From NCBI GenBank assembly GCA_002280485.1, contig NCED01000014.1, forward strand, positions 1 through 27,052: a stretch of DNA of 27,052 nt, read 5' to 3'. Positions 1-12,149 of this stretch are shown here, one piece after another; positions within the stretch are counted from its first letter, which is position 1; each line of letters opens with the position of its first letter. The notes beneath the pieces are model-generated. The model was not told where the DNA came from and did no database searches. It saw nothing but the letters and a program-made list of their open reading frames with translations. Both the position numbers and the translations under genes were made by a program. This DNA comes from Caulobacterales bacterium 32-69-10 (lineage in GTDB: Bacteria > Pseudomonadota > Alphaproteobacteria > Caulobacterales > Caulobacteraceae).

Positions 1-785
1 AACGGCAGGGCGTGGGCGTCGGCCAGCACGTCGGTGTGGCGGAAGACGGCGAACTCGGCCTCGATCACGTGGTCGAAGGCCCGCGCGCTGCCTCCGGCCG
101 ACAGGTTCAGCACCAGTCCGTCCGTCTGCTCGATCAACTGGAGGGCGCGTTGCGGCAGTTCGTTGGACACGTGGTCCCCCGGCATGACCCGCGGCTCGCC
201 AAGACCCGGGAACAGGACGGGCCGGCCGTGCGCCAGGGGCCAGGACTTGGCCGAGCCGGCGACGCCCAGGCCGGCGCCGCGCAGGGCGAGCGGCTGGCCG
301 GTCTGGGGGCAGCGCAGGTGAGGAAGGATGCGCTCCAGCCGGGCGGCCTGCTCCTCCGCCGTGCGCGGATGGTCGGCGCTCGCGTCGGCCGAGACAGGCG
401 CCGGCGGGTGCAGGGCGTGGTCGGCCTCGGCCACCCGCAGCCAGGGGTGGCGGCGGTGAATGTCGGCCAGGAGGCGGCGCTTGTTGGCGTTCACGTCCGT
501 CTGCGACCGGAGCATCGAATCGTTGTGCACGCGGTATTCGGCCAGGACCTCGGCGACCTGCTCGCCGAACATCCCCTGTTCGACCAGCTTGCACCAGAAG
601 TCATAGTCCTCCCACCCGAAGCGGATGTGGTCGTAGCCGCCGACCGCCGCCCAGGCCGAGCGGCGCACCAGGGCCATGGCGTCGATGTAGTTGGCGCCCT
701 TGAAGCGGGCCGGATCGAACGGTGCGATCCCCAGCGGGGGGCGGTCCTCGGCGGTCTGCGCGTCGCCGAACTCGCGGCTGTAGGG
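1..785 (-). pseudogene. In-frame continuation of the upstream glycosyltransferase (GT2 C-terminal half, Trm112-like, methyltransferase start) severed by a TAA
   Basis: Reading the minus strand on from the TAA at 788-786 in the same frame gives 261 open codons to the window edge with no further stop. The first residues, PYSREFGDAQ, directly continue the GT2 fold. They are followed by NYIDAMALVRRSAW, the GT2 acidic motif GWEDYDFW and EYRVHNDSM, all typical of the second half of family 2 glycosyltransferases. After about residue 150 comes LRCPQTGQPL, like a Trm112/YcaR-type element, then LVLNLSAGGSARAF and FRHTDVLADAHALP, which resemble motif I and the following strand of a SAM methyltransferase. 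The fragment has no convincing ribosome binding site; its first internal ATG, at 677, lies inside the GT2 domain. I infer that the stop is a nonsense mutation or a base-call error, not a natural gene end. The true 3' end is outside the window. Confidence 0.75.
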
Positions 786-3700
786 TTAGGCTAAGGCGGC
801 GGTCGTCTCGCGCAGCCGCTTCAGCAACCGGTCCAGAGCCTCGGGCAGCAGCCGGTTGTCGGCGTCCAGGGGCAGGACAAAGGGGGTGTCGGCGCAGGCG
901 AAGCCGACGTTGCGGGTCAGGGCGAGGCCCGAATTGGCCAGGTTGCGCAGCAGCAGCACGCGGTTGAAGCTGAGGACGTGCTGCCGCATCCACGCCAGCG
1001 CGACCTCGACCGAGGCGTCCGTCGAGCCGTCGTCGACCACGATGAGGTCGACCTCGCGCATGGTCTGGCCACGGACCGACTCAAGGGCTTCGACCACGTG
1101 GTTGGCGTAGTTGTAGAGCGGGATCACCACCGTGACGCGCGCGGGCCCCAGCCGGTCGTGTTCGAACAGCACCTCATGCGCGGGGATCTGCGGCGTCCGC
1201 GCCGGGACGTCGAGGTCGCGGGCGATATCGAGGGCGAAGGCGCGGGCGCCCACGCGGCCCCGCTGCAGGGTCTGATCGAGGATGGAGCCCAGCAGCTCCG
1301 TCCGGCGCTCCGGACCGTAGCGCACGATGGAGTCCAGCAGGGCGGCGCGGGCGACCGTCTTGCGCAAGTCGGGCTGGGTCACCAGCCGCTTGAGGGCCGC
1401 GTACCAATCGTCGCCGGTCAGGGCCAGGAAGCCGGTCACCCCGTCGCGGATCGCGATTCGGTAGGGTTCGGTCGGCGAGGCGATGGTCGGGGTGTCGACC
1501 AGGGCGGCCTCGAAATACTTCAGCTCGCTCTTGGCCTCGCAGAACACATTGCCGGTCTCGAGCGGGGCGAGGTTGATGTCGAACCGGGCGATCTCGTCGG
1601 GCAGGTTCTCGATCGGCACGAACTGCCGCCACTCGATCTGGTCGGCCAGGCCGTCGAACTCGGCATATTCGGAGACGTCCAGGGTCGGGCCCCACTGGCC
1701 GGTGAAGGCCACCAGCCGCGCCTCCGGGTGCTCGCGCAGGATGCGGGCCACGGCCGGCGCCACCTGGGCGAAGTCGGCTTGATGGGTTCGGGAGCCGGCG
1801 GCGTAGCCGATCCTGACGAAGCCATCGTGCTCCTCGGCGCGCCGCGCCCGGGCGGCCAGGCGCGAGCGCACCATGCCGGCCTCGTCGAAGCCGTTGGGGA
1901 TGCGGAACGCCACCTTCTCGTGGGTCATGCTCCAGCGCTGCATGAGCTGCGACAGGGCGGGGGTGGGCGAGCAGCCGAAATCCGAGGCGATCAGGGTGCG
2001 CTGCAGGCGCGAGAAATAGTCCTTGATGGCTTCCGGGTCGTGATTCTGGCTGCGCACGCCGTCGATGACGTCGGTCTCAACCAGGCTAGGATCGAAGATC
2101 AGGTCGTCGATGTCGAAGATCACCGGGACGCCGCCAGCCGCGGCGCGTTCGATGACCGGCGCGACGTTCACCTCGTCCCAGGCCGCGCGCCAGATGTAGA
2201 TCAGGTCGGCCGCGCCGAAGCGGTCCAGCTCGGCGTGGGCCTGGTCCAACCGGGTGATGCTGGTCGTGAAGCCCAGGGCCCGCGCCGCCTCGGCGATGCG
2301 AATAACCCGGTACTTGTGGCCGGGGGTGTCAGGCTCGCCCGACAGGAAGGCGATGTGCGGCGGCGGGGCTTCGCGCAGGGCCGGAGCCCGGGGCGCCTCC
2401 GCCTCGACGGCGGGCGCATCAACGGTCTCGGGAGCGGCGTCGAGGGCCGTCGGCTGCACGGCGTCGCGCTCGGCGAGCTTGCGGATCAGCTTGCCGGTCG
2501 CGATCCACCACGCGAGCTTGGCGCTGCGGCGCAGCAGGGTGCGCAGGAGCGGCGCCCGCTCCATCACCCGCCTCAGGCCGTGGGTCGCCTTCCAGGTGGT
2601 GCTGGTCTCGAAACCGTGCAGCCGAGCCTGCGCTTCGCGCTGGTCGGTTTCGGCGGCCCATCGGGCCAGGGTCGCCTCGGCGGCGGCGTTCTCCCAGCGG
2701 CGGCGCTCGTGCTCGACGCTCTTCACCAGGTCATCGAGGTCACGGATCTGGCGGTCGCGGACAAGCACGCCCTCGCGGGCCCAGCGCAGCTCCTGGTCCC
2801 GCTGGGTCAGCCGGTCGCGGACCGTGGCCAGGGCCCTGTCGGCCTCCAGCAGGCGCAGCACCTCGGCGTCACGCGCCAGGATCAGTTCGTCCCGCTCGTG
2901 GATCATCCCGTTCAGGTCGGCGATGATCCGGTCGCGGACGCGCAGCTCGTCGTGCGCGCCATGCAGCCGTTCGACGTCGCGCTGGTACGAGACCACCAGG
3001 GGGCCGAACAGGCCGACGCCCTCGGTGAGGGCCTCGCCGAGCCGGTCGAGAGTGGCCATGGCCTCGGCGTCGTCCGGATCGTCCCGCAGGCGCTTCAGCG
3101 CATCCCAGGCCTGCTGGCACAGTCGCTGCAGCGGGTCGCGGTCGTCGAGGGGGGTCTCGGCGCTGTGGTGGCGCAGTTCGCCGGTGAGGAAGGCGTCGAT
3201 CTCCGGCGCCGCCCGCATCAGGTCGCGAGGCCAGGCGAGGCCGAGCTCGCGCTCCATCTTGGCGACCAGGGTGCGCCAGTCGCCCATCAGGTCGTCGTAG
3301 AAGGTGAAGCTGCGGGCCATGCCGCGGCTGAACCGCTCGCCGTAGACGATGTGCTGCAGCCACATGAACAGGGAATAGGGCCGCGACAGCCCCGCCTTGG
3401 CGGCCAGGGACCCGGCCACCTCCAGGGGATGGCGCGCCGGCAGGATCGCCACGGCCTGGCGCTGACCGATCTCCAGGGCCTGGGTCCACACCGGCAGCAG
3501 CCGGCACATGCGCGGATCCTTGAACAGGCGCATCGGCTCGGCGCCGAACTCGTCGGTCAAGAGGTCGGCCAATTCCTCGGCCGCCGCCCGGCCCACCGGC
3601 GAGGCCACCCAGCCATAGTCGAGCGGCAGGGGGTCGTTGGAGGGCGAGCCGAGGCGGGCGAACAGGGCCTCGTGGAAGTCGACGATGCGCTGGGGCTCGA

Positions 3701-3887
3701 AATAGCCGCGCAGATTGTGGTGGTCCGTCGTCACCTGCTGCTCGGGAGCGGGCACGCCGAGCAGGTTCAGCACCCCGCCCAGCGCCGAGGTGCCGCTGCG
3801 GTGCATGCCCACGATCAGGACGGCGAGCGAGGTGCGGGACGTCCGTCCGGACCGGTCGTCCGCCTCGGAAGAGACCTTCTTCAGCAC
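786..3887 (-). CDS. Multidomain polysaccharide enzyme: sulfotransferase-like, coiled coil, GT4-like and truncated GT2 domains
   Basis: A 1033-aa product, probably involved in assembling or decorating a surface polysaccharide in the cytoplasm or at the inner membrane. Residues 21-35 (LAVLIVGMHRSGTS) form the PAPS-binding P-loop of sulfotransferases, and that domain runs to about residue 280. Residues about 320-470 are charged, heptad-like and probably coiled coil. From about 510 (HIAFLSGEPDTPGHKYRV) to 880 is a GT4/GT1-like glycosyltransferase. A GT2 domain starts near 918 (VTVVIPLYNYANHVVEAL, VVDDGSTD) with DADN at 1008-1011, but ends abruptly at a TAA after only 116 residues. The frame could open at 4073, but I place the start at GTG 3887: AGAAGGA lies 5 bases upstream and the sequence before it is low-complexity. 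It is divergent from an ABC exporter, supporting a capsule, O-antigen or holdfast-like role. The acceptor and sugars are unknown. Confidence 0.85.
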   Translation of the reverse strand: MLKKVSSEADDRSGRTSRTSLAVLIVGMHRSGTSALGGVLNLLGVPAPEQQVTTDHHNLRGYFEPQRIVDFHEALFARLGSPSNDPLPLDYGWVASPVGRAAAEELADLLTDEFGAEPMRLFKDPRMCRLLPVWTQALEIGQRQAVAILPARHPLEVAGSLAAKAGLSRPYSLFMWLQHIVYGERFSRGMARSFTFYDDLMGDWRTLVAKMERELGLAWPRDLMRAAPEIDAFLTGELRHHSAETPLDDRDPLQRLCQQAWDALKRLRDDPDDAEAMATLDRLGEALTEGVGLFGPLVVSYQRDVERLHGAHDELRVRDRIIADLNGMIHERDELILARDAEVLRLLEADRALATVRDRLTQRDQELRWAREGVLVRDRQIRDLDDLVKSVEHERRRWENAAAEATLARWAAETDQREAQARLHGFETSTTWKATHGLRRVMERAPLLRTLLRRSAKLAWWIATGKLIRKLAERDAVQPTALDAAPETVDAPAVEAEAPRAPALREAPPPHIAFLSGEPDTPGHKYRVIRIAEAARALGFTTSITRLDQAHAELDRFGAADLIYIWRAAWDEVNVAPVIERAAAGGVPVIFDIDDLIFDPSLVETDVIDGVRSQNHDPEAIKDYFSRLQRTLIASDFGCSPTPALSQLMQRWSMTHEKVAFRIPNGFDEAGMVRSRLAARARRAEEHDGFVRIGYAAGSRTHQADFAQVAPAVARILREHPEARLVAFTGQWGPTLDVSEYAEFDGLADQIEWRQFVPIENLPDEIARFDINLAPLETGNVFCEAKSELKYFEAALVDTPTIASPTEPYRIAIRDGVTGFLALTGDDWYAALKRLVTQPDLRKTVARAALLDSIVRYGPERRTELLGSILDQTLQRGRVGARAFALDIARDLDVPARTPQIPAHEVLFEHDRLGPARVTVVIPLYNYANHVVEALESVRGQTMREVDLIVVDDGSTDASVEVALAWMRQHVLSFNRVLLLRNLANSGLALTRNVGFACADTPFVLPLDADNRLLPEALDRLLKRLRETTAALA

Positions 3888-4020
3888 TTCGATCCTTCTT
3901 AAGCCGTCGCTGCGGCTCCGGCCGCCCCCTTGCGAGCCTGGGTTTGGAGTAGCGTCCTGATCGCCCCTGTCAACGCGCCATCGCCAAGCTGGCGGGTTGG
4001 CCGCGGCCCGATCCGCTTGT

Positions 4021-4036
4021 GACCCCCTGGGGGGTC
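4021..4036. promoter_or_regulatory. Perfect 7-bp inverted repeat, possible operator in the divergent wzm/glycosyltransferase intergenic region
   Basis: The 194-base region 3888-4081 separates the divergent glycosyltransferase and exporter genes and should carry both promoters. GACCCCC and GGGGGTC flank a TG spacer, giving a perfect two-fold symmetric site. TTGTGA at 4017-4022 and TATTCG at 4040-4045 are 17 bases apart and could be weak -35 and -10 boxes for wzm, placing the palindrome in the spacer. The symmetry is seen; operator function is inferred. Confidence 0.3.
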
Positions 4037-4081
4037 TGCTATTCGACGCCACCCTCCCGGAAAGCTCCAGCATTGTCCGTC

Positions 4082-4915
4082 ATGACTGATTTGCCGCGCA
4101 TCCACATCAGCGGGCGGAGCGGCCTCGGCGCCGACCTCAAGGAAGCGGGAAGCGATTTTGCCGGGGCGGCGCACCGCTGGCGGCTGTGGATGGCGCTCGC
4201 CACCCATGACATCACCTCGCGCTACCGCGGCTCCCTGCTCGGCCCGTTCTGGATCACCGCCACGACCGCGGCGATGATCGGCGGCGTCGGCCTGATGTAC
4301 TCCCAGCTGCTCAACCTGAGCCTGGCCGAGTACATCCCCTGGCTGGCCACGGGCATCGTGTTCTGGACCTTCTTCTCGCAGGTGATCACCGAGGGCTGCG
4401 ACGCCTTCATCGCCTCGGGGGCGATCATCAAGCAGACCGCCATACCGATGATGAGCTTCATCGCCCGGATGGTCGCGCGCAACCTGATCAACTTCGCTCA
4501 CCAGCTGCTGATCATCGTCGCTGTGATCGTCTATTTCGGCCTGTGGAAGGTGGCCAACCCGCTGCTCTGCCTGGCCGGGTTCGCGCTGGTGCTGATCAAC
4601 CTGTGCTGGATCGCCCTCGCCAGCGGCATCATCTCGGCCCGCTTCCGCGACGTGCCGCAGATCGTCACCGCCGTGGTGCAGGTGGCGGTGTTCATCACCC
4701 CGGTGTTCTGGCGGCCCGAAGCCATCAAGGCGCACCGCTTCGTGCTCAACGGCAACCCGTTCTACCACATGCTGGAGGTCACCCGCCGGCCCCTGCTGGG
4801 CGAGCCGGTAGCCCTGCACAGCTACCTGCTGCTGATCGCCATGGCGGTGGTGGGGTGGATCTTCGCCTACGTCCTGTTCGCCCGCACCCGCCGGCGCGTC
4901 GTGCACTACCTGTGA
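4082..4915 (+). CDS. wzm: ABC-2 type polysaccharide export permease
   Basis: A 277-aa inner-membrane permease of the Wzm/KpsM/RfbD class, expected to work with the adjacent ATPase to export a lipid-linked polysaccharide. After a soluble N-terminus, the motif ITSRYRGSLLGPFWITATT is the hallmark of the O-antigen ABC-2 permease family. About six hydrophobic segments follow (for example IGGVGLMYSQLL, YIPWLATGIVFWTFF, LLIIVAVIVYFGLW, LVLINLCWIALASGI, VAVFITPVFW, YLLLIAMAVVGWIFAYVLF), and the protein ends in a basic tail, RTRRRVVHYL. The reading frame extends upstream to 4019, but that extension crosses the palindromic probable promoter and has no family similarity, so ATG 4082 is preferred. The stop lies 22 bases before the ATPase start, indicating an operon. 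Confidence 0.9.
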   Translation: MTDLPRIHISGRSGLGADLKEAGSDFAGAAHRWRLWMALATHDITSRYRGSLLGPFWITATTAAMIGGVGLMYSQLLNLSLAEYIPWLATGIVFWTFFSQVITEGCDAFIASGAIIKQTAIPMMSFIARMVARNLINFAHQLLIIVAVIVYFGLWKVANPLLCLAGFALVLINLCWIALASGIISARFRDVPQIVTAVVQVAVFITPVFWRPEAIKAHRFVLNGNPFYHMLEVTRRPLLGEPVALHSYLLLIAMAVVGWIFAYVLFARTRRRVVHYL

Positions 4916-4937: not shown

Positions 4938-5723
4938 ATGAGCAGCGAAGTCGCCATCGAGATGCGGGATCTCGCCATCCGCTTCCCGGTCTACGGGGCG
5001 GATCAGCGGTCCCTGAAGCGGTCGCTGGCCAAGATCGCCATCGGCGGCGCCATCGGCGGGCGCGGGTCCGGCGGCGGCTCCAACACCGTCTCGGCGCTCA
5101 GCCACGTCAACCTGTCGCTGAAGGCCGGGGACCGGCTGGCCCTGGTCGGCCCCAACGGTTCGGGCAAGACCACCCTGCTGCGGGTCATGGCCGGTGTCTA
5201 CGCCCCGGACGAGGGGTCGCTGACCACGGTGGGCAAGATCGCCGGCCTGCTCGACCTGTCGCTGGGCCTGCAGCCGACCGCGACCGGCAACGAGAACATC
5301 TACCTGCGCGGGCTGGTGGCGGGGCTGAGCAAGGCGCAGATCCAGGCCAAGACCGAGGAGATCGCCAGCTTCAGCGGGCTCGGCCAGTTCCTCGGCCTGC
5401 CGCTGAAGACCTATTCGTCGGGCATGCTGGCGCGCCTGGCCTTCGCCGTGGCCACGGCCGTGGACGCCGACATCCTGCTGATGGACGAGTGGATCGCGGT
5501 CGGCGACGCCGAGTTCCGCGACGCGGCCCGCGCCCGGCTGATGCGCCTGATCGAGCAGTCGCACATCCTGGTCCTGGCCTCGCACGAAATGGATCTGGTC
5601 AAGGGCCTGTGCAACAAGTTCATGCACCTGGAGCACGGGGTCGCCTCCCCCGTCATGCCCATCGAACAGATCGACGACTTCATGGCCGCCCAGGCCGCCG
5701 GCCGGATCGCGTCGGCCGCATAA
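4938..5723 (+). CDS. wzt: ABC transporter ATP-binding protein, polysaccharide export (short Wzt/KpsT type)
   Basis: A 261-aa cytoplasmic ATPase partner of the upstream permease. Walker A is GPNGSGKTT at 71-79, the ABC signature YSSGM is at 159-163, Walker B DILLMDE is at 178-184 and the switch-histidine context LASHEMD is near 213. LQPTATGNENIYLRG matches the polysaccharide-exporter branch of ABC ATPases. A glycine-rich stretch at 35-48 precedes the nucleotide-binding core. At this length it lacks the C-terminal carbohydrate-binding domain of long Wzt proteins such as that of E. coli O9a, so chain-terminus recognition by that domain is not expected here. The start is ATG 4938, 22 bases after the permease stop. 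Co-transcription with wzm is inferred from spacing. Confidence 0.92.
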   Translation: MSSEVAIEMRDLAIRFPVYGADQRSLKRSLAKIAIGGAIGGRGSGGGSNTVSALSHVNLSLKAGDRLALVGPNGSGKTTLLRVMAGVYAPDEGSLTTVGKIAGLLDLSLGLQPTATGNENIYLRGLVAGLSKAQIQAKTEEIASFSGLGQFLGLPLKTYSSGMLARLAFAVATAVDADILLMDEWIAVGDAEFRDAARARLMRLIEQSHILVLASHEMDLVKGLCNKFMHLEHGVASPVMPIEQIDDFMAAQAAGRIASAA

Positions 5724-8466: not shown

Positions 8467-10485
8467 CTAGACAAACACCACCCAACCCGGAGTGAAGGCC
8501 GTAAAGGCGACGCCCATCAGCACGATGACGTCCCCGCCCCCGAGATCGAGGGCGGCCTGGCCGGCGATATCGGCGACCGTGTAGGCCGTGGCTGGCGCCA
8601 GCTGGATACGGTCGCCTTCGGCCGCATTGAAGTCGGCCACCCAGTCGCCGCCGCTGCCGGCGCGGAAAAGGAAGCGATCCGCGCCAGCGCCGCCGGTCAG
8701 CAGGTCGTTTCCCAGGTCGCCAGACAGCCAGTCGTCCCCGGCTTCGCCGAGCAAATGGTCGGCGCCCTGCCCTCCGTAGACGGTATCGTTCCCCTCGCCG
8801 CCATAGACGCTGTCGTCTCCCAGGTTGCCGTTGACGTGGGTATCGTCGCCCGCGTCGCCGTAGACGGCGTCATTGTCCTTACCGCCGCGCGCAAAGTCCG
8901 ACCCCGCCCCGCCATGGACGACATCGGCGCCGACGTTGCCGTTGACGTCGTCGTCTCCCGCCCCGCCGTCCACCAGATCGGCCCCATCGAGCCCCCGGAT
9001 CAGATTGGCGCCGGCGTCGCCGGTCAGGCTGTCGCCGAACGGCGAGCCAATTGCTCCTTCGAACCCGATCATCCGCTCCAGCGCGAAGCCATCGACCGGC
9101 CGGTCGCTGTTCAGGGTCGCCGATACGCCGGCGGTCTCGTCGGCATAGCTCACCTGGTCGAAGCCGACGCCGCCCGTCATGGAGTCGGCTCCTGTCCCGC
9201 CGAGGACGATGTCGTCGCCCGCCCCCCCGGAGAGGTAATCGGCGCCGCTCCCGCCCGAGAGCGTGTCCGCGCCGTCGTCGCCCCAGATCCCATCGTCAGC
9301 CGCGAGGCCGTTCAGCTGATCGTCGCCCCCCTCGCCGGCGATCTGGTCGGCCAGGTCGCTGCCCGTCACCGTGTCTCCGAAATCGCCGCTCCAGAGCGCG
9401 AAGGCTTCTATGCCGACGGCGACGCTTCCATTGGCGAAGGCGCGCGAAAGATTGAACTCGGAAGGACCGGGGCGGTTATCGAGCACGATTCCCAGAACGT
9501 CCGACCCGGACCCGCCGTCGACGAAGAAGCGTTCGGCCTCGACATAGAGCTGGTCGGCGCCAGCGCCGCCGCGCAGGGTGTCGCCGCCGCTGCCGGCGTC
9601 GATCAGGACGTCGGCCCCGTCGCCCCCGTCCAGCACATCGGCCCCGTCGTTTCCGACCAGCATGTCGTCGCCGGCGCCGCCGAAAACACTGTCGTCGCCA
9701 TCGCCCCCCGACAGGGTGTCGTTATCCTCGTCGCCGTTCACCTGGTCCGCGCCGCCGGAGCCGAACAGGTTGTCGTTCCCCGCCCCGCCTGAGAGCCTGT
9801 CCAGGGTCTCCACGCCCCGAAGGGTGTCGCCGCCGGCAAGACCTGTCTGAACGAGGGTGAAGCTGGAGGGGTCCCACGACCAGGCCGACACTTGCGTTCC
9901 GTCGGCCCCGGGACCCCCGTAGAGATGGCGGGCCGCCTCCAGGTCGTAGGCCTTGAGCTCGGAGGGCTCGGACCCGTAGGCCATGACCGTATTCTGCTGT
10001 CCGGTGAGGGTGTCGGTGGTCAGGTCCCCCTCGAACGGATGCTTGAAACCGAGTGCGTGACCGATCTCATGCAGCAGGATGCCGGGGTGCGTGCTGAAGT
10101 CGGATGCGGAATCCAGAAGGACATCGCCGCCCAGGCGACTGCCGGGATAGTAGGCGAAGCCCGAAGAGTCCTTGGCGATCTCGGGGATAAGTTCGAAATC
10201 GAGCTTCGAGAAGCGGATGTCGCCCTGGCCGGAGGGGACCTCGAAAAATTTCAACCCGCTGTCCGCTTCCCAGGCGGCGAGGGCCGCTCGCGCCGTGGCG
10301 CGTTCCGCCTCCGACATTGGGGTGAAGCTCGCCGTGGCCGCGGCGCCGTAGCCGGCGACGGGCGTCAGGTCGGCGTTCGCGACCGTCTCGAACGAATAGG
10401 TCAGGAACACCGCCTGACCGAGAACACCCTGGTAATTCCAGCTGTCGCCGGAAATGACCGCCCGAAAGTCCGAAATGATCGTCAT
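8467..10485 (-). CDS. Serralysin-like (M10) zinc metalloprotease with RTX repeats
   Basis: A predicted secreted 672-aa protease. The zinc site HEIGHALGFKHP (His139, Glu140, His143, His149) fits the metzincin HExxHxxGxxH motif, and the Met-turn NTVMAYGSEP (Met168, Tyr170) follows at the right distance. Downstream are three blocks of GGxGxDxxx calcium-binding nonapeptides, separated by linkers with other sequence. The C-terminus is a short hydrophobic strand (VIVLMGVAFTAFTPGWVVFV), consistent with a type I secretion signal; no N-terminal signal peptide is present. Neither an ABC/HlyD secretion pair nor an inhibitor gene is adjacent. GTG codons at 10491 and 10488 immediately precede ATG 10485; I prefer the ATG, with G-rich sequence just upstream. 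One repeat unit has ten residues instead of nine. Confidence 0.93.
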   Translation of the reverse strand: MTIISDFRAVISGDSWNYQGVLGQAVFLTYSFETVANADLTPVAGYGAAATASFTPMSEAERATARAALAAWEADSGLKFFEVPSGQGDIRFSKLDFELIPEIAKDSSGFAYYPGSRLGGDVLLDSASDFSTHPGILLHEIGHALGFKHPFEGDLTTDTLTGQQNTVMAYGSEPSELKAYDLEAARHLYGGPGADGTQVSAWSWDPSSFTLVQTGLAGGDTLRGVETLDRLSGGAGNDNLFGSGGADQVNGDEDNDTLSGGDGDDSVFGGAGDDMLVGNDGADVLDGGDGADVLIDAGSGGDTLRGGAGADQLYVEAERFFVDGGSGSDVLGIVLDNRPGPSEFNLSRAFANGSVAVGIEAFALWSGDFGDTVTGSDLADQIAGEGGDDQLNGLAADDGIWGDDGADTLSGGSGADYLSGGAGDDIVLGGTGADSMTGGVGFDQVSYADETAGVSATLNSDRPVDGFALERMIGFEGAIGSPFGDSLTGDAGANLIRGLDGADLVDGGAGDDDVNGNVGADVVHGGAGSDFARGGKDNDAVYGDAGDDTHVNGNLGDDSVYGGEGNDTVYGGQGADHLLGEAGDDWLSGDLGNDLLTGGAGADRFLFRAGSGGDWVADFNAAEGDRIQLAPATAYTVADIAGQAALDLGGGDVIVLMGVAFTAFTPGWVVFV
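8675..9800 (-). repeat. RTX nonapeptide repeat region within the metalloprotease gene
   Basis: Imperfect 27-base units encode GGxGxDxxx calcium-binding turns in three clusters: LSGGAGNDNLFGSGGADQV and following, GEGGDDQLNGLAADDGIWG and following, and GDAGANLIRGLDGADLV to GGAGADRFLF. Each cluster should fold as a parallel beta-roll once calcium is bound outside the cell. The boundaries given are approximate. Confidence 0.9.
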
Positions 10486-10552
10486 CACCACCCCCGCCCC
10501 GATCCCGACAATAGGCGCCGGAGCGAGAGTGGCAACGCGTCATCAACCTAAG

Positions 10553-11682: not shown

Positions 11683-11711
11683 GTCGCAGACATCCGGGCT
11701 CCACCCCTTCA

Positions 11712-12149
11712 ATGGCCGAATTCGCGATCGATCCCCGCCTTGTCGCCGCCACCCACCCCCTTGTCTCGCTCAAGCTGAGCGAGGCGCGTCTCTACGCCGA
11801 CGCCCGCTGGCCGTGGATCCTGCTGGTCCCGCGCAAGGTCGGCGCCCGCGAGCTGGAGCACCTGACGACGGCGGACCGGGCCGTGCTGATGGACGAGATC
11901 GTCGCCGCGGGGATGGCGGTCCGCGCCATCGGGGCGGCGTCGGGCCGTCCGGTCGAGAAGCTGAACGTCGGCGCCATAGGCAACAAGGTCGAGCAGCTGC
12001 ACATCCACATCGCCGGCCGCCGTCCGGACGATCCGGCCTGGCCCGAGCCGGTGTGGGGCTTCGGAACGGCCAAGCCCTATGCGGAAGCCGACCTGGCGAC
12101 GGTCCGTGAGGCCGCCCTGACCGCCTTTCAGGGGCTGAAGCGGAAGTAA
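11712..12149 (+). CDS. HIT-family nucleotide hydrolase/transferase-like protein
   Basis: A 145-aa cytoplasmic protein. The histidine-triad region is VEQLHIHIAGR at 93-103, with catalytic His97 and His99. The first position of the usual H-x-H-x-H motif is Gln95. PWILLVPRK at 34-42 and EKLNVGAIGNKV at 82-93 match the nucleotide-binding fold of the family. Substrates are usually nucleoside phosphoramidates or dinucleoside polyphosphates; the exact one cannot be read from the sequence. The frame extends upstream to 11577, but that part is arginine-rich and probably non-coding, so ATG 11712 is chosen. It is divergent from mdh and converges on the next gene with a 6-base gap. Confidence 0.88.
   Translation: MAEFAIDPRLVAATHPLVSLKLSEARLYADARWPWILLVPRKVGARELEHLTTADRAVLMDEIVAAGMAVRAIGAASGRPVEKLNVGAIGNKVEQLHIHIAGRRPDDPAWPEPVWGFGTAKPYAEADLATVREAALTAFQGLKRK

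What the first reader, a model, noticed from the sequence alone, without database searches (positions are those of the whole stretch)
786..788. In-frame TAA splits a large glycosyltransferase at a conserved tyrosine position
Seen: after RETTAALA the frame meets TAA, then continues open for 261 codons with the rest of a GT2 domain (PYSREFGD, GWEDYDFW, YRVHNDSM). Family knowledge: GT2 proteins of this branch commonly read ...YPYSREFG or similar here, so TAA differs by one base from a Tyr codon (TAC/TAT). The upstream product ends immediately after DADN and lacks the acidic ED motif, so it should be inactive in its GT2 step. Possible explanations are a recent nonsense mutation, a base-call error, read-through or phase-variable loss of a surface glycan.
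Basis: partly seen in the sequence, partly recalled or inferred. Interest (0 to 1): 0.7.

Follow-up and report, generated by a model that had tools for sequence, protein, structure and literature searches.

The report
Stray stop codon in glycosyltransferase gene
One gene for a large sugar-chain-building enzyme in an environmental bacterium is cut by a single stray stop codon that its known relatives lack; it is most likely a sequencing or assembly error or else a very recent mutation, and in either case ordinary.

Summary
The TAA at 786-788 (minus strand) is in the given sequence and interrupts one ancestral gene. Of 279 listed database proteins aligned across it, 253 have Tyr and 17 Phe in that column; the five nearest listed (65-76% identical) all have Tyr and one continuous protein. 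Of 85 genome loci held, 78 span the site and none has a stop in that column. The 261 codons downstream show no decay: GC3 0.935 against 0.933 upstream, and 0 of 77 conserved columns up to residue 1214 changed.

Two points favour a local error: the stop lies about 786 bases from what appears to be the end of its only known contig, and TTA, two codons upstream, is the only TTA in 8,404 codons counted, in a column where 250 of 279 relatives have Phe or Tyr. No reads or second assembly were available, so a consensus error (favoured) and a recent nonsense mutation cannot be separated. I found no support for phase variation, programmed read-through, recoding or a natural gene boundary. The gene is of a known kind (modular enzymes beside a Wzm-Wzt exporter). 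Interest is low.

The parts
786..788 (-). in-frame TAA, residue 1096 of the frame opened at 4073
   Evidence: no stop in this column in the 279 proteins and 78 loci that span it
792..794 (-). TTA (Leu) codon two codons upstream of the stop; the only TTA in 8,404 codons counted; the column is Phe or Tyr in 250 of 279 relatives, Leu in 3
789..3887 (-). upstream piece, 1,033 aa from the start used in the database copy P0124 (the ORF opens at 4073): sulfotransferase-like N-terminus (weak), charged stretch that may be coiled coil (not tested), GT4, and the first half of GT2 with DADN
   Evidence: PF13692, PF00534 and PF00535; PF13469 at 16.9 bits, below its cut-off of 27; P0124
3..785 (-). downstream piece, 261 codons: second half of GT2 (GWEDYDFW) and the region that leads into the methyltransferase of relatives; cut by the window edge
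   Evidence: relative P0004 has PF08241 at its residues 1309-1356
4076..4915 (+). Wzm-like ABC-2 permease, divergent neighbour (Pfam run on 4037-4915; the start is my choice)
   Evidence: PF01061 5.3e-12
4938..5723 (+). Wzt-like ABC ATPase, 261 aa; no further C-terminal domain reported by Pfam at 1e-3
   Evidence: PF00005 2.5e-21

Best explanation
One continuous multi-domain glycosyltransferase (probably also methyltransferase) gene carries an isolated, unprogrammed in-frame stop. Shown: a single gene in relatives, Tyr conserved at the site, no decay downstream. Inferred: the stop is most likely a consensus error (library, sequencing or assembly) near a contig end, made together with the odd TTA two codons upstream; the organism then makes the full protein and nothing regulates this codon.
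For: The five nearest listed relatives are continuous with Tyr here. GC3 is 0.935 downstream against 0.933 upstream; of nine A-ending rare codons checked, one (a GCA) occurs in the 261 downstream codons, and 0 of 77 conserved columns between residues 1099 and 1214 are changed. The only TTA in 8,404 codons counted is 6 bases from the stop; the chance for a lone TTA to lie within 2 codons is about 5e-4 (a test chosen after seeing it). Both odd codons are one substitution, of one and the same class, from the commonest window codon for the residue of most relatives (codon counts; no DNA of a close relative was seen); that class is the one produced by oxidised guanine in library preparation (passages of PMC5521083). 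The stop is about 786 bases from the apparent end of a 32,884-base contig; both database copies have one member and one contig. Spurious internal stops from low coverage or poor reads are reported to be common in bacterial assemblies (passages of PMC11017572).
Against: The rest of the contig end looks clean (0 of 77 conserved columns changed after the stop), so there is no general drop in quality. The sequence context that PMC5521083 gives for shearing damage would fit only one of the two codons. The excess of private residues beside the stop is weak (p about 0.05); Tyr at 1098 does occur in 8 of 279 relatives and Leu at 1094 in 3 of 279, and 2 of the 73 loci with a codon aligned at 1094 have TTA there. 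No reads were seen.
Confidence: 0.55

Rival explanations
1. A real, recent nonsense mutation: this strain has lost the GT2 step and the C-terminal methyltransferase, and so probably makes no, or an altered, exported glycan.
For: The stop is in the sequence and the rest of the contig end looks clean. Surface-glycan genes are often lost in populations and clustered substitutions also arise in vivo (both recalled). A relative's copy (P0135 and P0268, both with a longest contig of 205,735 bases, so probably one contig) is also in pieces.
Against: No trace of relaxed constraint downstream, though a very recent mutation would leave none. P0135 reads as if frameshifted in places (my reading), as read errors would do, and is not cut at this site.
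Confidence: 0.38
2. Programmed or tolerated read-through, recoding, or a phase-variable switch gives two products from one gene.
For: The downstream frame is intact. Short inverted repeats flank the site, for example perfect 11-base arms at 641-651 and 795-805 (that tool gives no chance control, and GC-rich sequence gives many such pairs).
Against: No stop in this column in 279 proteins or 78 loci. The stretch between those arms already aligns with relatives in its present orientation, so turning it round would not give back the relatives' protein. No tandem tract was listed, no stable structure follows, and five other ORFs counted in the window end in TAA, so TAA looks like an ordinary stop. 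A cut after DADN leaves half a GT2 domain.
Confidence: 0.04
3. A natural boundary between two genes.
For: C-terminal-only ORFs exist among relatives, some on long contigs (P0215 476,318; P0210 109,849; P0205 82,802 bases). Some relatives end just after GT2 (P0050, P0108).
Against: The stop falls inside the GT2 domain. C-terminal pieces begin at scattered columns: ten at 1114-1133 besides the window's own, P0205 and P0210 earlier (my reading). The only listed protein that ends near the stop is the window's own.
Confidence: 0.03

Closest known systems
Spurious internal-stop pseudogenes of draft bacterial assemblies (PMC11017572; start of abstract in a listing, and passages)
   Same: single internal stop in an otherwise intact conserved gene, known from one contig only
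   Different: coverage, platform and read quality of this contig are unknown
WsaE of Geobacillus stearothermophilus (PMC2943079; passages)
   Same: one protein with two glycosyltransferase domains and a methyltransferase, in a cluster with wzm-wzt; there the methyl group caps the chain
   Different: its methyltransferase is N-terminal; in relatives of the window gene it is C-terminal behind GT4 and GT2, and a sulfotransferase-like part leads; no activity is known here; sequence not compared
Klebsiella O7 ORF6 and WbdD-type coiled-coil terminators (PMC11231755; passages)
   Same: large modular protein with methyltransferase, coiled coil and GT modules for ABC-exported glycans
   Different: module order differs; coiled coil, ruler function and chain end are untested here
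Chondroitin synthase structures 2z86/2z87
   Same: closest solved sequence relative of the GT2 domain (E 1.7e-16 with X at the stop)
   Different: covers the GT2 domain only

Membership tests
GT2 glycosyltransferase (PF00535) | profile match above the curated cut-off, with a DxD-type motif | tested here: met
   upstream piece 81.2 bits against a cut-off of 23.3; DADN present, its second D and its N in 273 and 274 of 279 relatives
GT2 glycosyltransferase (PF00535) | acidic ED motif (catalytic base, role recalled) in the same polypeptide | tested here: not met
   E1155 and D1156 (278 of 279 relatives each) lie after the stop; met only if the stop is not real
Class I methyltransferase (PF08241) | profile match in the gene | tested here: inconclusive
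   no Pfam match at 1e-3 in the downstream piece, which ends at the window edge; relative P0004 matches at 2.8e-14
Pseudogene | stop present in the organism and fixed | not testable with these tools
   no reads, no second assembly; no whole genome held
Phase-variable gene | repeat tract or invertible element that toggles the frame | tested here: not met
   no tandem tract at the site (which leaves out units of 1-3 bases; longest run seen nearby is G6 at 736-741, downstream of the stop); short inverted repeats flank the site but the enclosed stretch is already in the relatives' orientation
Stop-codon read-through or recoding | stop conserved among relatives together with the downstream frame | tested here: not met
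   no stop in this column in the 279 proteins and 78 of 85 loci that span it

The most novel reading that the evidence does not exclude
The TAA is real, and the truncated protein with GT4 and half of GT2 is kept in the population as a glycan-off variant, with the methyltransferase part made separately from the internal ATG at 677.
Probability: 0.03. Interest if true: 0.35.

Novelty: already known. Interest (0 to 1): 0.1.

Why it matters
Mainly as a caution: a lone internal stop in a single contig, next to a one-off rare codon, should not be read as biology before the reads are inspected. If the stop is real, it marks a strain that has very recently lost the second half of a glycan-building enzyme.

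Tried and rejected
Different frame for the second half: rejected, both halves are in one frame. Alternative genetic code: rejected, five other ORFs counted end in TAA and the aligned relatives have sense codons here. RNA families at gathering score, tRNA and tmRNA: none found in the window. Promoter-like or terminator-like sites in 1-4300: none found. Relatives of the downstream piece in viral contigs: none confirmed among 5 candidates. Template copying from elsewhere in the window: apart from the site itself no stretch within 5 mismatches of the local 19-mer. A search of 385 genomes of the class of one relative: 264 had some match, the best listed identity was 51% and that was the centre genome itself. 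A+T content of 18-mers was uninformative. NCBIfam gave no listed match at or above its cut-off for the two pieces or P0004. Structure prediction was not used, as it would not decide between error and mutation. In one search my frame for the ORF at 11710-12149 was wrong and it was left out of that count; it was recounted in its listed frame. That the other window genes have no internal stop is true by construction, since they were picked as ORFs; I did not compare them with relatives, so other broken genes are not excluded.

Full report
What is there. The minus strand of the window carries an ORF from 4073 (database start at 3887) to a TAA at 788-786; the same frame then runs open for 261 codons to the window edge. 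The finding is correct in substance. The product would end 22 residues after DADN, within the GT2 domain.

One gene, not two. The frame read with X at the stop aligns with continuous proteins: P0004 (76% identical, 1,476 aa), P0006 (70%), P0005 (69%), P0050 (66%) and P0108 (65%). Of 318 proteins held, 3 were the query forms and 2 the window's own copies; 279 gave an alignment that spans the site, with Tyr 253, Phe 17, His 4, gap 4, Val 1 in that column. These proteins are the best 120 listed from each of three searches, so they are not a full census. In the 73 loci the column reads Tyr 44, Val 10, His 10, gap 4, Phe 3, Met 1, Glu 1; by my reading the non-aromatic cases are mostly low-scoring alignments with gaps nearby. 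With the loci added, 78 of 85 loci span the site; six have a stop somewhere in the aligned span, all at columns 1215-1246, past the GT2 domain, and none at this column.

Counter-evidence looked for. Some relatives have C-terminal-only ORFs, also on long contigs (P0215, P0205, P0210), and one relative (P0135 with P0268) is in pieces with stretches that read as frameshifted. Their starts are scattered and none marks a boundary at this column; the only listed protein that ends near it is the window's own copy P0124.

State of the downstream part. GC3 is 0.935 after and 0.933 before the stop. Of the columns in residues 560-1214 that are identical in the five nearest relatives, 7 of 363 differ in the window, the stop and residue 1098 among them; after residue 1098 it is 0 of 77. 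So there is no sign of long decay: the event is very recent or not real.

Signs of a local event. TTA occurs once in 8,404 codons counted (8,213 plus 191), two codons before the stop, in a column that is Phe or Tyr in 250 of 279 relatives and Leu in 3. Each of the two odd codons can come from the commonest window codon for the residue of most relatives by one and the same substitution class, that of oxidised guanine in library preparation (passages of PMC5521083). This is inference: no DNA of a close relative was available, TTA could also have arisen from another Leu codon, and the sequence context given in that paper would fit only one of the two. The closeness of private residues is by itself weak (given the stop, another within two residues: p about 0.05); Tyr at 1098 is seen in 8 of 279.

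Place in the assembly. P0199 stops exactly where the window starts, without a stop codon, which implies that the contig ends there and that the TAA is about 786 bases from the end. Internal stops of this kind are a reported product of low coverage or poor reads (passages of PMC11017572). No whole genome is held and reads cannot be seen, so a real recent nonsense mutation remains a strong rival.

Other readings. Read-through, recoding and phase variation find no support: no stop in this column elsewhere, no stable RNA structure, no tandem tract listed. Short inverted repeats of 8-17 bases do flank the site, the clearest being perfect 11-base arms at 641-651 and 795-805; the stretch between them already lies in the relatives' orientation, so I do not take it for a switch, but no chance control was run.

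What the gene does (inference). The relatives join a sulfotransferase-like N-terminus (weak Pfam match below cut-off), a charged stretch that may be coiled coil (not tested), GT4, GT2 and, in the longer ones such as P0004, a methyltransferase. The divergent neighbours are a Wzm-Wzt-type ABC exporter. In plan, not in module order, this resembles WsaE and the Klebsiella O7 protein. If the stop were real, the product would lose the second half of GT2 and the methyltransferase.

Organism. 71% G+C; probably an alphaproteobacterium of the Caulobacterales, which rests on gene content (recalled) and one hit named Phenylobacterium at 54%, and is not settled.

Verdict. Ordinary: an isolated stop in one contig, error favoured over recent mutation; interest 0.1.

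Noticed in passing
window 8467-10491 (-): RTX protein: 12 stretches of the calcium-binding nonapeptide repeat and a matrixin-like (Peptidase_M10) match.
   Followed up: no
P0135 and P0268 (contig length 205,735): A relative whose copy of this gene is in pieces that read as frameshifted; likely read errors, possibly a second natural loss.
   Followed up: partly
P0004-P0006 versus P0050 and P0108: Close relatives come in two lengths: about 1,460 aa and about 1,140 aa ending just after GT2; P0004 has a C-terminal methyltransferase and P0108 none in Pfam.
   Followed up: no
window 4938-5723 (+): Wzt-like ATPase without a C-terminal glycan-binding domain reported by Pfam, beside the modular glycosyltransferase.
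   Followed up: no
window 641-651 and 795-805: Perfect 11-base inverted repeat enclosing the stop and the TTA, among several short GC-rich pairs.
   Followed up: no
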